This document shows, piece after piece, positions 56,191 through 64,000 of a stretch of 64,000 nt of DNA. Source of the DNA: Sphingomonadales bacterium (lineage in GTDB: Bacteria > Pseudomonadota > Alphaproteobacteria > SMXS01). Numbering within the stretch: the stretch's first letter is position 1; the number at the start of each line of letters is the position of its first letter. A program made the translations under genes and the position numbers. The DNA is taken from the NCBI GenBank assembly GCA_022844405.1, contig JALHLV010000001.1:248001-312000 (forward strand), read 5' to 3'. The notes below the pieces were generated by a model that ran no database searches, was not told where the DNA came from, and saw only the letters and a list, made by a program, of their open reading frames with translations.

Positions 56191-58059
<1,869 letters not shown>

Positions 58060-58228: not shown

Positions 58229-58762
58229 TTAGCGTCGGCGGCGGTGTCCGCCGAAGCCGCCGCGGCGCTCCCTCATACGGTAGCCGCCATCGGACCCGCC
58301 GCCAAGGCGACGACCACCATACTGACGATCGTTACCGCCGAGACGACGACCGCCGTAGTAGCGCTCGTTGTCGCCGAGACGACGCTCGCCGTACTGACGA
58401 TAGTTCCCGCCGCGATAGCCGTTCTGCCGCCAATCGCCATAGCCGCGCTGCATGCCTCGCCGGGGGGCGTAGTCCTGGCTAAAGCCATGCCGCTGGTAGC
58501 GGTCGGGGCTCATCTCATAGGACGGCGGTGGCGCATTGGCATAGGGGGCCGGCTCGGGCGCCGGCGCGGCATAGGGCTCGGGCTGGTAGTATGGAACGGT
58601 CGGCGGTGCCGCGCAGGGCGGCAGCTCGGTCATGGCCGACTGGGGATCGTAGTAGGACTGGGCATGGGCCGGGGTGGTCGAGGCGATGGCCACCAGGCCG
58701 GCACCAACGGCGATGGCCAGCGCGAGCCGGCGGCTGAGCTTTTCGATGTTGAGCGTCGTCAT
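58229..58762 (-). CDS. Exported low-complexity Tyr/Gly/Arg-rich protein
   Basis: A 177-residue protein with a signal peptide (LAIAVGAGLVAIASTTPAHAQ). The mature region has a Pro/Tyr-rich part (PYYQPEPYAAPAPEPAPY) and then repeats of the type YGGRRLGGNDRQYGGRRLGG, ending in GGHRRRR. It has no enzyme signature; the composition suggests an RNA- or surface-binding, or structural, exported protein. An intrinsic terminator follows. Confidence 0.8.
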   Translation of the reverse strand: MTTLNIEKLSRRLALAIAVGAGLVAIASTTPAHAQSYYDPQSAMTELPPCAAPPTVPYYQPEPYAAPAPEPAPYANAPPPSYEMSPDRYQRHGFSQDYAPRRGMQRGYGDWRQNGYRGGNYRQYGERRLGDNERYYGGRRLGGNDRQYGGRRLGGGSDGGYRMRERRGGFGGHRRRR

Positions 58763-58936: not shown

Positions 58937-59821
58937 ATGAGAATCTTACCTCGATACCGGGAAAAAGCATCAAGAGATTGTAAGTCTGAAATCGGAGAAA
59001 AAATCGTGTCGGAGAAAATTGTTGTAACCATCGAATCGTTGGTCGGACTGTTCATCCCTGAAAGCTCACGGCTTAAAGTATTCACTACTGATATGAAGAG
59101 AATTTTTATAGATTTGATAAATATTTATCCGCCCATGGCATTATATTTTGAGAAAAATACACATCTTATTCAAGATTGTCTCTTGAGCGTTCTAAAGCGT
59201 ATATGGAACATCGAGGTAGTTTTTCAGGGAGATAATTGGCGTCTCAATAAGGATTGGGCAATGGAGTATGTGTTGAGGGTATTCTATGTAGAATTATGTA
59301 TTCTTTTAAAAGAAGGCTTTATTGAAAATGGAAAAAAATCCGAAAAACTGAAAATAATAGAAGAAGTATTCAGGGATATTGTAGAAACTCCAAGAAATAC
59401 AACTTTATCTAAAGAATTCATTGCAAGGGTTGAAATAGAGATGTACGCTATGAGATTCTCTGATGATCGGGATATCATGGATATTCTCCATGTGTTTAGA
59501 TCCCTGGACGATGATGTCGATACGGCTCTTTTTTCGAAATCCGCTGGCAAGGGTAACCCCCGAAAGGCTTCACCTGTCAGCATGTTGGGAGAAGGCCATG
59601 TTGCCTGGGGCGAAACGTCCCTTGGCGTTGTCGGCAAGCAGAAGCCACAATACGTGGCTCCCTACAATGACATCTCAAACCAAGCATTGGCCGCTGAACT
59701 GAATCAAGATCTCAGCGCGCAGCGGCACGACTGGACCAGTGACCAAGTAGCGACAAAGCTGCAAAAGCTTAGGCGCTATGTCAGTAAGGTTCTCGGCGAT
59801 ACAAAGGTCATGATGTCATGA
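58937..59821 (+). CDS. Gene A of unknown-system operon: 294-aa protein with AT-rich 5' part
   Basis: A 294-residue soluble protein that I do not recognise. Residues up to about 190 are helical, Ile/Leu/Lys/Glu-rich and encoded by DNA unusually AT-rich for this genome (most marked at 59060-59460); the last 100 residues (from GKGNPRKASPVSMLG on) have a more typical base content. ATG 58937 follows TTGGAGGC; a GTG at 59007 is an alternative. It heads a chain of overlapping genes, ending in ATGA with the micro-ORF. The AT-rich part indicates transfer. Confidence 0.7.
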   Translation: MRILPRYREKASRDCKSEIGEKIVSEKIVVTIESLVGLFIPESSRLKVFTTDMKRIFIDLINIYPPMALYFEKNTHLIQDCLLSVLKRIWNIEVVFQGDNWRLNKDWAMEYVLRVFYVELCILLKEGFIENGKKSEKLKIIEEVFRDIVETPRNTTLSKEFIARVEIEMYAMRFSDDRDIMDILHVFRSLDDDVDTALFSKSAGKGNPRKASPVSMLGEGHVAWGETSLGVVGKQKPQYVAPYNDISNQALAAELNQDLSAQRHDWTSDQVATKLQKLRRYVSKVLGDTKVMMS

Positions 59822-59946
59822 TCTCGTTGGAGGTAGCCTCTTCGCCGTATCAGGCTCGCCAATCTGTCTTAAATCGGATTGGCAAGGCCTTTACACAACG
59901 TTCCTTTTCCTTTGCTCGATCGAGCCAGTTCGGAGCCGAACAATGA
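59818..59946 (+). CDS. 42-aa micro-ORF coupled to both neighbours
   Basis: The ORF MISLEVASSPYQARQSVLNR...SSQFGAEQ begins with an ATG that overlaps the stop of gene A (ATGA) and ends with a TGA that overlaps the ATG of gene B (ATGA). Both junctions have the same four-base form, so a ribosome could move through all three genes. The product is small, basic and soluble. It might also be a leader that couples A to B and have no function of its own. A GCCAATC...GATTGGC hairpin lies in it (59858-59883). Confidence 0.5.
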   Translation: MISLEVASSPYQARQSVLNRIGKAFTQRSFSFARSSQFGAEQ

Positions 59947-60695
59947 CCAAGCTCTCGAAAGCTGAGAAACTCCAGATTCTAGTCGATCTTCTGCAGTCCG
60001 GAAATCGACAGCATGTCGATGCTGCCGAGAGCTTCCCGGCAGTACTACTGGTGAGTGACGAAGAGCAAGATCAAGTCAGGGCGGTCATGATCAAGGCCCT
60101 AGGTCTTCCAGAAAATTGGCTTCATGACCATGGCGACTTCGGTGAGATTCGGGCCCTGCTGGAAGGCGCGGCCCAGACCCCTTCGGCGATTTCCCATCAT
60201 GTTTCCGAAAGCACTTCCGTCTTGCAGGATGCGGTCGATGATATGGTAGCGGCTATTGCCAGTTACAAACGGCGCCTCGTCGAATCCAGGGTGCTGCTGC
60301 TTGATTTTTATTTCAGCGAAAAGAACAGGCCGGCTGGTGCGCTTGCCGCCGACAAGTTGCCTCAGATTCCGGCCGCGGGAACGACGCCCAGCGTTCGGGT
60401 GAGTTGGGAGCAATCCGGGCAGAAATGGTCGCTGAAGGGCTTTAAGCGGGACCGTGAATTCGAGGTAGAACTGCGCCCGGAGGAGGGCGCTGCCGGGAAA
60501 CCGGTCGCCATCAGTTGGCTCAACGCCAGATCAGGCAAGCTGGATCGCTTTGCGGTCACTAATGTTGAGGACCGGTACTTGGTTCGCATAGGGCTCGCCA
60601 ACCTGCAAATGCAGTTGGAGGTGTTGGAGAGGGCAGCTTCCGGCCATGCCCCGGAGGGGGGACTGCCCCTCGTCGAATTCACAGAATCTCCGTGA
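59943..60695 (+). CDS. Gene B of unknown-system operon: 250-aa protein
   Basis: A 250-residue protein without a recognised domain. The first ~120 residues are helical (KAEKLQILVDLLQSG, AVDDMVAAIASYKRRLVESR); the rest looks beta-rich (VRVSWEQSGQKWSLKGFKRDREFEVELRP and RFAVTNVEDRYLVRIGLANLQMQLEVLE). There is no signal peptide. Its TGA shares one base with the next ATG (TGATG), so it is coupled to gene C and probably a partner of it. Confidence 0.75.
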   Translation: MTKLSKAEKLQILVDLLQSGNRQHVDAAESFPAVLLVSDEEQDQVRAVMIKALGLPENWLHDHGDFGEIRALLEGAAQTPSAISHHVSESTSVLQDAVDDMVAAIASYKRRLVESRVLLLDFYFSEKNRPAGALAADKLPQIPAAGTTPSVRVSWEQSGQKWSLKGFKRDREFEVELRPEEGAAGKPVAISWLNARSGKLDRFAVTNVEDRYLVRIGLANLQMQLEVLERAASGHAPEGGLPLVEFTESP

Positions 60696-63600
60696 TGGAT
60701 AGTCTCGAAGACATCTGGCTGCGGGACCAGGCGCTCGCGTTGAGCGCGACGTTGCTGGCCGATCTGCCCAATGCCGTGGATCGATGGCGTATCGATGAGG
60801 TGTCGAGGGCAACGCAGGTGATCGCCGATCTGCTGTCCAAAACGAGTCTAACGGTGCTGTCGGATTCCACGATTTCGCTCCTCGCCAGCGTGCCGACTGG
60901 ATATGCCAATGCCGAAGAACTCCAGGATTTCGATGCTGCCACACCGCTGACACCCTTCCTCGCTCAGGTAAGGCAGGAAGTGGAGGCCAGAAAGTCGCTC
61001 TTGAACCAACAGGCGAAAAGCGCCGAAAGGCGCGATTGGCCGGAAATTCTGATTTCGCACGCGGTTCACGTCCTCAGCCAGGACCACCTGTCGGTCGAGG
61101 ACTTTCTGAAATGGGTCCAGCGCGTTGTCATGCGGCAGAAGTCGGTCATTGGCTATATCCTCGACAAGCTGGAGGCGGACGGGCAAGGAAACCAAGCAAG
61201 CGAGGATACGAATGCACTTCTAGCGGCGGCCAGGGGAAACTCCAGGCAAACCAGGGATCGCGTCGAGGCCATTGACCGGTTACATCGGCGCATATCTGAA
61301 CTCGCGGGCTCGGGCTACTCCCTTGAATGGTGGACGAGAACCTGCCTGGCCTTTCGCAACAGCCTGTATTGCTGGCCGCTAATGGTGTCGGTGTCGGAGA
61401 TGTCCGAGTTGAATGGCATCAGTCTGCCTGTCGGTCTGTTCCTGTCGCCCGACGACAATAGCAAGGTATATTTCAAGAAGATTGTGTCCCGAGGTTCCCG
61501 GGAGCCGCCTACGCACTTTGTCGCAGCGACGAGGGACCTACCTGCACACTTAACCGGCAGCAAACTTTACTGGAATCGGGAATGGGGTGATTCCTTCGTC
61601 CGGGGACTGAGGATCGCGAAGGCGTTGTGGAAGAGCCAGAACGGCCGGTTCAACTTCGTTAATTCTGCCGCCGCTGAACACAAGATGAAGGAAAGCCTGA
61701 TCGTCGATCTGGGGCCGGCCTGCGCTATCGTCGACTTCGTCTTCGGTCCACTTCAGGCGGCACGTTTTGAACTCGCCGGTCGAAGCGCGGAAGCCTATTG
61801 GACGCAGGCCGTACTAGGGCTGCTGCTGCCGGGCAGTCAGCTGCCCACCGGCGTGGTGACCGGAAAGGTCGTCGATGCGGATGGTGCGTTTGAGCTGCGC
61901 CATGTCGAGGGTATCCGCAAGAAGCTTGAATATGCCGATCGTGCCGGCTTTTCCCGGATCGTTCTGCCCCCAGGTGAAGAGGATGAGGTCGAGGCATTTC
62001 AGAACCGGTTAAAGTCCATGGGGAATGCCCAACGGATCGAGATGAACGTCTGCCAGAACGCTCGCAGCGCTGCGGACGCGATGCAGCCTTCAGGCTGGCG
62101 TAGAAGCTACTTCCTGCGGTTACCAGAGGTTCAGCAATCTTTCAGCACCAATCTTCGGCGACTTTTCATGAGGCAGCAGCTCGAAAGGGGCGAAGCTATT
62201 AAGCCCGCAGAGCTGCGGACCTATCGCAGGAATCCATGGGAGGCAGCCGAGACGAAGCATCTAGAGAATCTGGACCGGTTCCTCTGCTCGCGGACGAAAG
62301 CGATAAAGTTCTGGGACTGCAGCAAACATCGAACGGACATCGAAAGCGACATCGGCAAGTGGCTTGCCTGGAAGGACGAGCAGGTCAGGGAAGGTCAGGC
62401 CACGGGTGCCCGAGGACCTGGGCTGGGCGTGCTCTGTATCCGTACCGCAGCACGCGACAATGAAATGCGGGTATGGGCGGCGATTGCCGATGCTCTTTGC
62501 GCCAGTCCTGATTGGTGGGAAAAATTCCAGTGGTCTAGCCGGGATCAGGCTGCCGAGTTGCTCGCCCAACTGCTGGGGAACCAAAGGGCCGACCCTACGA
62601 TTAGTGCCTCGCCGGCGCCGGACATCCTTGTAATTTTTGACGGCGGTGATTTCACACGCACCCGGCGGAGCGCGGTGTTCCCGGACGACTTTCGTGGACG
62701 GTGGCGCGAGTTGCTGAACCCAACCAAGGGTACACGCAATACGGCTCGTAAGGCCGATGACCCTCTCAGTGAGGCACTTTTGAGGATGGGCGGTGGCCGA
62801 CTAGGGCCAACCCGCATCATCGTGATTCAGGGAAGTCAGTCGACATCACCATGGCCGTTCCCAGAGGATTTGTCGGACGACGACCGGGCTGCACTACGCA
62901 GGTTATCGATCTTCCGCTATGGCTTCTCCCGGCAGGCGGCGTATTCCATAATCAATTTCAGGCGCCCGACGGCGGATAATCGGGAGTGGCCAGAGATCAT
63001 GGAGCAGCTGGGCCGACTGGTCCAGAAGGGTCTGCTCAAGCGCACGCGCGGCCAGTACCATATTCCGGCGGCCTATCGGCAAGCGTTAAACGGCGCACAC
63101 GTCGATGATCCCGCAATGCATTATCAGGCCGCCAAGGTCTTGGTGCCGATTTTGGAGCCTACCGGGCACTTCCTATCCTCGAATCGTGATCGCGAGTTTG
63201 AGCCGGAGCCCGTTCTCGAGGCCACGTGGCATCTCAGCAAAGCGAGGGACTTGCTATCGAAACGGGACATATCGCTCCGTCCGCGATGCAGCGATGCTGC
63301 CTCGCGCCTGAATTTTCTCCGTCCGTTTCCCGACTGGGACACGGTCTTCGAGCTTCGCGCTCATCCGCAGACGCAGAATGCCGCAGTGGAATTGGGCCGA
63401 GAACTTTTGAGCCGAGAGCAAGAGTCAGCAAAGCGCCTGCCCCACAGTTCCAGGATAGCGGCGCATCTGGCTACGATCGCCAGATTATCCGGGTCAAATC
63501 TAGATGAAATGCGTCTTCAGAGTTTACAGACTGAAGTGGAATATTACATCACGATGGCGCACAAAAGTATAACCACTACATTTACGTCGGCACGGTGGGG

Positions 63601-64000
63601 TCAATATCGTAAGTTATACTCAGACTACTTATACTGTCTCAAGGCGCTTGGCATTAGAGGTAAATTCGTCAAGCGCGCCGAAAATTATCTGCAGGCGGCT
63701 ATGGCGGAAATCAGTAGTGATGCTTTTCTGACAAGAGTCGATAGGTCGACGGATTACATTCACAAATTTCCGATCTCCCAAGATTTCTGGCGTGTTTTTT
63801 GGCTGGACCAAAATCTCGCTCCCCGGTCTCGTCTGGCCTATGCATTCTGCGCCACCCGCGCAAATCTTGGCGCTTGGGTTGACGGAAAGCAGACAAGGAT
63901 GCCATGGGATCTGCCGTGGCTTGAGTATTTTGCGCTTACGGAGCCGTTGAAATACGGACGGGATGAGGTCGTCACTCAGTTGCGCACCTGGCACCGGGTT
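60695..64000 (+). CDS. Gene C of unknown-system operon: giant protein with Lon-like protease and STAND-like parts (continues off window)
   Basis: An open frame from ATG 60695 runs for all 1102 codons to the window end with no stop. Residues about 318-435 resemble the Lon (S16) proteolytic domain: ELAGRSAEAYW puts Ser364 where Lon has GPSAG, then PTGVVTGKVVDADGAF, and VEGIRKKLEYADRAGFSRIVLP puts Lys410 where Lon has its catalytic Lys. Residues about 575-795 look like a STAND-type NTPase: LGVLCIRTAARDNEMRVWAAI, hhhhD-type DILVIFDGGDF (643-653), RIIVIQGSQ (707-715) and a winged-helix-like LVQKGLLKRTRGQYHIPAAY; a Walker A GxxxxGK[ST] is not visible. Helical residues follow to the end. The role is unknown; a triggered protease is my inference. 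Confidence 0.8.
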   Translation, partial: MDSLEDIWLRDQALALSATLLADLPNAVDRWRIDEVSRATQVIADLLSKTSLTVLSDSTISLLASVPTGYANAEELQDFDAATPLTPFLAQVRQEVEARKSLLNQQAKSAERRDWPEILISHAVHVLSQDHLSVEDFLKWVQRVVMRQKSVIGYILDKLEADGQGNQASEDTNALLAAARGNSRQTRDRVEAIDRLHRRISELAGSGYSLEWWTRTCLAFRNSLYCWPLMVSVSEMSELNGISLPVGLFLSPDDNSKVYFKKIVSRGSREPPTHFVAATRDLPAHLTGSKLYWNREWGDSFVRGLRIAKALWKSQNGRFNFVNSAAAEHKMKESLIVDLGPACAIVDFVFGPLQAARFELAGRSAEAYWTQAVLGLLLPGSQLPTGVVTGKVVDADGAFELRHVEGIRKKLEYADRAGFSRIVLPPGEEDEVEAFQNRLKSMGNAQRIEMNVCQNARSAADAMQPSGWRRSYFLRLPEVQQSFSTNLRRLFMRQQLERGEAIKPAELRTYRRNPWEAAETKHLENLDRFLCSRTKAIKFWDCSKHRTDIESDIGKWLAWKDEQVREGQATGARGPGLGVLCIRTAARDNEMRVWAAIADALCASPDWWEKFQWSSRDQAAELLAQLLGNQRADPTISASPAPDILVIFDGGDFTRTRRSAVFPDDFRGRWRELLNPTKGTRNTARKADDPLSEALLRMGGGRLGPTRIIVIQGSQSTSPWPFPEDLSDDDRAALRRLSIFRYGFSRQAAYSIINFRRPTADNREWPEIMEQLGRLVQKGLLKRTRGQYHIPAAYRQALNGAHVDDPAMHYQAAKVLVPILEPTGHFLSSNRDREFEPEPVLEATWHLSKARDLLSKRDISLRPRCSDAASRLNFLRPFPDWDTVFELRAHPQTQNAAVELGRELLSREQESAKRLPHSSRIAAHLATIARLSGSNLDEMRLQSLQTEVEYYITMAHKSITTTFTSARWGQYRKLYSDYLYCLKALGIRGKFVKRAENYLQAAMAEISSDAFLTRVDRSTDYIHKFPISQDFWRVFWLDQNLAPRSRLAYAFCATRANLGAWVDGKQTRMPWDLPWLEYFALTEPLKYGRDEVVTQLRTWHRV

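What the first reader, a model, noticed from the sequence alone, without database searches (positions are those of the whole stretch)
58937..64000. Uncharacterised operon (294 aa, 42 aa, 250 aa, >1102 aa) with a Lon-like and STAND-like giant protein
Four reading frames follow each other with ATGA, ATGA and TGATG overlaps, so they are made together. The last encodes a huge protein combining an apparent Lon-type protease with a STAND-like segment; the others have no family I can name, and the first is partly AT-rich. A sensor ATPase joined to an effector protease and coupled to small partners is the general design of many conflict systems, so an antiphage or stress-triggered proteolysis role is plausible. 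The proof lies partly outside the window.
Basis: partly seen in the sequence, partly recalled or inferred. Interest (0 to 1): 0.85.

Follow-up and report, generated by a model that had tools for sequence, protein, structure and literature searches.

The report
Mobile operon with dead-protease-like giant protein
A rare, horizontally acquired set of three or four genes, centred on a giant protein with a broken Lon-protease-like domain, recurs on foreign-looking DNA in three bacteria, once beside an anti-phage-type gene, and is probably an undescribed defence or stress-switch system.

Summary
Four overlapping frames run from 58937; the last, cut by the window, is 1338 aa long (60692-64708). The block is an insertion after thiC: five congeners have thiC next to the genes that here lie beyond the island, and here 733 bp of thiC's 3' end are repeated past the island. 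Its genes have third-position GC of about 0.65 or less, against 0.9 in the host. No product matches Pfam, NCBIfam, PADLOC, PHROGs or PDB. Both have gene 1, gene 3 and gene 4 in the same order; there gene 1 has a sigma-region-4-like helix-turn-helix, and a DUF4407 membrane protein and a helical protein lie upstream. In G190 the set rides a roughly 21-kb tRNA-Ala integrative element with an integrase, Prim-Pol and an Avs4/PDC-M54-like gene. The Lon resemblance is real (profile score 34; at most 21 in 200 shuffles), but the catalytic lysine is R/V/V in the three proteins, so proteolysis is unlikely. STAND is not supported: no Walker A, no similarity to nSTAND1, failed structure models. Best reading: a mobile sensor scaffold tied to a regulator, probably defence. 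That function is inferred.

The parts
58937..59821 (+). gene 1, 294 aa, no family; the AT-rich first ~200 codons are joined to a GC-normal C-terminal ~94 aa; same operon position as the HTH/sigma-region-4-like gene 1 of the two relatives
59818..59946 (+). gene 2, 42-aa frame overlapping both neighbours; may be a translational coupler rather than a functional protein
   Evidence: no homologue recognised in relatives
59943..60695 (+). gene 3, 250 aa; conserved partner of gene 4, conservation mostly in the C-terminal ~100 aa
60692..64000 (+). gene 4, 1338 aa; continues to window coordinate 64708 outside the window
61649..62056 (+). Lon-peptidase-like region of gene 4 (aa 320-455): Ser365 (codon 61784-61786) lines up with the Lon catalytic Ser; Arg409 (codon 61916-61918) sits where Lon has its catalytic Lys
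58229..58762 (-). small secreted-looking ORF (177 aa) at the left end of the insert; absent from 9 other genomes of the family
57326..58058 (+). 3' part of thiC that is repeated (97%) beyond the island at about window coordinates 65416-66148 (outside the window), marking the insertion

Best explanation
This is a rare, mobile three-component system (gene 1 regulator, gene 3 adaptor, gene 4 giant scaffold) brought in by horizontal transfer and inserted behind thiC. Shown: island insertion, foreign base composition, conserved gene 1-gene 3-gene 4 order in three hosts, a sigma-region-4-like helix-turn-helix in gene 1 of two hosts, a Lon-like domain lacking the catalytic Lys, no P-loop, and carriage on an integrative element beside an Avs4-like gene in one host. 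Inferred: gene 4 is a non-catalytic receptor and scaffold that recognises an invader or stress signal through its Lon-fold and helical regions; gene 3 couples it to gene 1; the signal frees or activates gene 1, which changes transcription, and in the fuller versions a DUF4407 membrane protein and its helical partner act at the membrane. The likely purpose is defence against phages or other mobile elements.
For: Insertion with an empty site in five congeners and a thiC repeat only here. GC3 of 0.64-0.65 in genes 3 and 4 against 0.90-0.93 in the neighbours, and the system is also AT-richer than its surroundings in both relatives. Gene 4 absent from the other genomes of the family and found in 2 of 399 phylum genomes. 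Conserved order with DUF4407 and the helical gene in two genomes. In G190: tRNA-Ala plus a 17-bp repeat, integrase, Prim-Pol, DUF3987 and a 1775-aa protein matching the PADLOC models PDC-M54A (4.4e-12), DUF626_VIII (1.9e-13) and Avs4 (1.3e-5). Lon similarity above all 200 shuffles. Published precedent for ECF sigma + adaptor + multidomain conflict systems and for inactive STAND receptors (PMC8195603).
Against: Nothing here tests function. Gene 1 of the window shares no significant similarity with gene 1 of the relatives. The DUF4407 pair is missing from this genome. The one clear defence neighbour is seen in one genome. The domain reading of gene 4 outside the Lon segment rests on low-confidence models (pLDDT 35 and 48). 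With three family members, statistics of neighbourhood are impossible.
Confidence: 0.45

Rival explanations
1. An active proteolytic defence system: gene 4 is an NTP-driven STAND-Lon protease that cuts a target when triggered.
For: Lon-like region is real and Ser365 is invariant in the three proteins; Lys411, two residues from the Lon Lys position, is invariant.
Against: The aligned catalytic Lys position is Arg/Val/Val; no Walker A in any member; no similarity to an nSTAND1 profile.
Confidence: 0.12
2. A mobile-element regulatory or stress-response module: gene 1 is a sigma-like regulator and genes 3 and 4 control it in response to a cell-envelope or metabolic signal, with no defence role.
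For: Sigma-region-4-like helix-turn-helix in gene 1 of two relatives; DUF4407 membrane partner in the same two.
Against: Scattered distribution, foreign composition and the Avs4-like neighbour fit defence cargo at least as well.
Confidence: 0.28
3. A selfish or decaying leftover of an integrative element with no present benefit; gene 1 here is a chimera and the membrane module has been lost.
For: No DUF4407 gene in this genome, abrupt composition change inside gene 1, no integrase noticed among the island's larger frames.
Against: Genes 3 and 4 are intact and full length, with many invariant residues in gene 4 at 38-39% identity across three hosts, which indicates selection on the proteins.
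Confidence: 0.15

Closest known systems
ECF sigma + DUF1822 + EACC2-caspase systems (Kaur et al. 2021, PMC8195603)
   Same: Sigma-like regulator gene, middle adaptor gene and a large multidomain protein encoded together; predicted conflict role
   Different: No caspase, EACC2 or DUF1822 match in this system; the giant protein carries a Lon-like domain instead; gene 1 here has no detectable sigma domain
iSTAND / iSTAND2 MoxR-vWA ternary systems (Kaur et al. 2020 and 2021, PMC7159879 and PMC8195603)
   Same: A giant protein with a possible NTPase-like segment that lacks the nucleotide-binding motif, proposed there to be an invader sensor
   Different: No MoxR-vWA pair was identified with this operon; STAND homology of gene 4 is not demonstrated
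Lon protease / Lon_C (PF05362)
   Same: Detectable profile similarity centred on the motif V-G-x-x-x-K-L...A-x-RAG...P; Ser aligned
   Different: Catalytic Lys replaced, no AAA+ P-loop, far larger protein, different operon
Avs4 / PDC-M54-type STAND defence genes
   Same: A gene matching these models is carried on the same integrative element in G190
   Different: It is a separate neighbour gene; no homology of gene 4 to it was detected

Membership tests
Lon protease | Lon_C peptidase-domain similarity | tested here: met
   hhalign against 30 Lon domains: score 34.1, P 8.5e-5; 200 column shuffles reach 21.4 at most. HMMER/Pfam sees nothing
Lon protease | Ser-Lys catalytic dyad | tested here: not met
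   Ser365 invariant and aligned (low-confidence part of the alignment); Lys position is R/V/V in the three family members
Lon protease | AAA+ ATPase with Walker A | tested here: not met
   No [AG]xxxxGK[ST] in any of three gene 4 proteins
STAND NTPase | Walker A P-loop | tested here: not met
STAND NTPase | Profile similarity to a STAND family (nSTAND1) | tested here: not met
   score 19.0, within the shuffled range up to 24.1; other STAND families not compared
STAND NTPase | P-loop fold followed by winged helix | tested here: inconclusive
   Order of predicted strands and helices fits, but pLDDT 47.7 and Foldseek finds nothing
iSTAND ternary system | MoxR-vWA gene pair in the operon | tested here: not met
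   No Pfam match of that kind in the four window genes, nor in gene 1, 3, 4, DUF4407 and helical genes scanned in the relatives; a weak vWA match (E 0.008) lies on the opposite strand downstream in L009
ECF sigma-DUF1822-EACC2 caspase system | Sigma-factor gene in the operon | tested here: inconclusive
   Sigma70_r4 at E 1.4e-4 in G190 and 0.02 in L009, both below the curated cut-off; none in the window's gene 1
ECF sigma-DUF1822-EACC2 caspase system | Caspase domain and DUF1822 protein | tested here: not met
   No Pfam match of that kind in genes 3 and 4 of any of the three genomes
Known anti-phage systems in PADLOC-DB 2.0 (including BREX BrxL) | Match to a system protein model | tested here: not met
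   No match for any of the four window proteins at E <= 1

The most novel reading that the evidence does not exclude
A new class of mobile bacterial immunity or conflict system in which a giant receptor built from a dead Lon-peptidase fold, a P-loop-less NTPase-like segment and helical regions controls a sigma-like regulator and an optional DUF4407 membrane module.
Probability: 0.35. Interest if true: 0.78.

Novelty: new variant of a known kind. Interest (0 to 1): 0.55.

Why it matters
No family library used here recognises the giant protein or its gene 3 partner, yet the pair travels intact on foreign DNA among distant hosts and in one of them lies beside a recognised type of anti-phage gene. 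If it is a defence system, it would show a protease fold and perhaps an NTPase fold reused as non-catalytic sensors, and would add a transcription-output design to bacterial immunity. It is small enough (about 5.8 kb here) to be cloned and tested directly.

Tried and rejected
Pfam, NCBIfam, PADLOC and PHROGs scans and PDB sequence searches of the products: nothing useful beyond a sub-threshold Lon hit in PDB at E about 1. Relatives of gene 4 in phages, plasmids and viral contigs: none (the only plasmid hit, E 0.4, is chance-level). Gene 1 has none in plasmids, gene 3 only chance-level plasmid hits, DUF4407 and the helical gene none in plasmids, the helical gene none in viral contigs. STAND homology by profile against nSTAND1: rejected at this sensitivity. 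AlphaFold of gene 4 aa 207-827 (pLDDT 35) and aa 536-827 (pLDDT 48) from two-row alignments: unusable; Foldseek gave no match at E <= 0.001. Weak gene 4 matches in G031, G306 and G056 were discarded: short, with in-frame stops. Core or housekeeping origin: rejected because congeners lack the island.

Full report
Observation. The window cuts gene 4; from the same contig it is complete at 1338 aa and ends at window coordinate 64708. I see no further gene of the operon after it: the next features are a small reverse-strand secreted-looking frame and a 3' fragment of thiC.

Where it sits. Upstream is an intact thiC (56218-58059); downstream, beyond the island, 733 bp of thiC's 3' end recur at 97% identity, with a stretch of about 450 bp that is identical between diverged ends, the footprint expected of recombination at thiC. 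In five genomes of the same genus thiC is followed within about 0.1-1.4 kb by TrmO, an EamA transporter and a luciferase-like monooxygenase, with no island (TrmO was not detected at DNA level in one of the five, and the fifth stretch ends within the transporter) (names). Only this genome has the second thiC piece. Gene 4 was found in none of the other nine genomes of the family, and the small secreted-looking frame at the left edge is also private to this genome. Third-position GC is 0.35 in the first 200 codons of gene 1, 0.64 in gene 3 and 0.65 in gene 4, against 0.93 in thiC and 0.90 in TrmO. This is horizontally acquired DNA.

Relatives. Both carry gene 3 directly upstream of gene 4 (G190 and L009 gene 3 are clearly homologous; the window's gene 3 is more distant, 24-26%, but shares position and C-terminal motifs). 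Both carry a gene 1 with a C-terminal helix-turn-helix that resembles sigma-70 region 4 (E 1.4e-4 and 0.02, below the curated cut-off). Both also carry upstream a DUF4407 membrane protein and a helical protein 67% identical between them. The window's genome has neither, and its gene 1 shows no significant similarity to the others, although its last ~94 codons, unlike the first 200, have the operon's base composition.

Mobile element and defence neighbour. In G190 the system starts about 280 bp after a tRNA-Ala gene; the 3' end of that tRNA recurs as a 17-bp exact repeat about 21 kb further on, just beyond a tyrosine integrase, with Prim-Pol and DUF3987 genes between. The next large gene after the operon encodes 1775 aa and matches PADLOC models DUF626_VIII (1.9e-13), PDC-M54A (4.4e-12) and, weakly, Avs4 (1.3e-5). 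So in that genome the system is cargo of an integrative element that also carries a defence-type gene. In all three genomes the system is AT-richer than its surroundings.

Domains. Comparing a three-sequence profile of gene 4 with 30 Lon peptidase domains picks residues 404-441 of gene 4; for the segment 320-455 the score is 34.1 (P 8.5e-5), while 200 column-shuffled versions reach 21.4 at most. Ser365 falls on the catalytic Ser in the less certain part of that alignment. The catalytic Lys position is Arg in the window's protein and Val in the others. So the fold is probably Lon-like but the Ser-Lys dyad is broken (inference from alignment, not assay). The STAND reading fares worse: no Walker A in any member, no similarity to an nSTAND1 profile beyond shuffles, and structure models too poor to use. 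What remains is a plausible order of strands, a conserved hydrophobic strand ending in Asp and a winged-helix-like segment.

Mechanism. Most likely gene 4 is a non-catalytic receptor and scaffold, gene 3 an adaptor and gene 1 the output regulator, with a membrane module in fuller versions. This is inferred from architecture and from the published sigma-plus-adaptor conflict systems and inactive STAND receptors. A defence purpose is favoured by mobility, rarity and the Avs4-like neighbour, but rests on three loci and no experiment.

Verdict. Real, accessory, horizontally acquired and unnamed by current libraries; the protease and STAND labels should not be used as functions. Interest moderate to good because it is testable and the core proteins match no family in the libraries searched.

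Noticed in passing
window 57326-58058 and L002:9417-10149 (about window 65416-66148): 733-bp repeat of the thiC 3' end flanks the island; diverged at both ends but identical over about 450 bp in the middle, suggesting recombination or gene conversion at thiC.
   Followed up: yes
window 58229-58762 and L002:8851-9174: Two small reverse-strand secreted-looking ORFs rich in Tyr/Arg/Gly sit at the two edges of the island; no Pfam match, and the left one is found in no other genome of the family.
   Followed up: partly
L008:4773-4848 to L090:11808-11824 (G190): About 21-kb integrative element at tRNA-Ala with integrase, Prim-Pol, DUF3987, a 1775-aa Avs4/PDC-M54-like gene and the system described here.
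   Followed up: yes
L008:5125-7508 and L009:3-1753: Conserved pair of a DUF4407 membrane protein and a helical protein (67% identical between hosts) directly upstream of the system in both relatives.
   Followed up: partly
L009:8634-18365: Downstream of the Neomegalonema copy, on the opposite strand, a run of large membrane or secreted proteins including one with a vWA-like domain (weak CoxE match).
   Followed up: partly
window 58937-59821: Gene 1 changes abruptly from 36% to 54% GC at about codon 200, as if a foreign N-terminal part had been joined to an older C-terminal part.
   Followed up: partly
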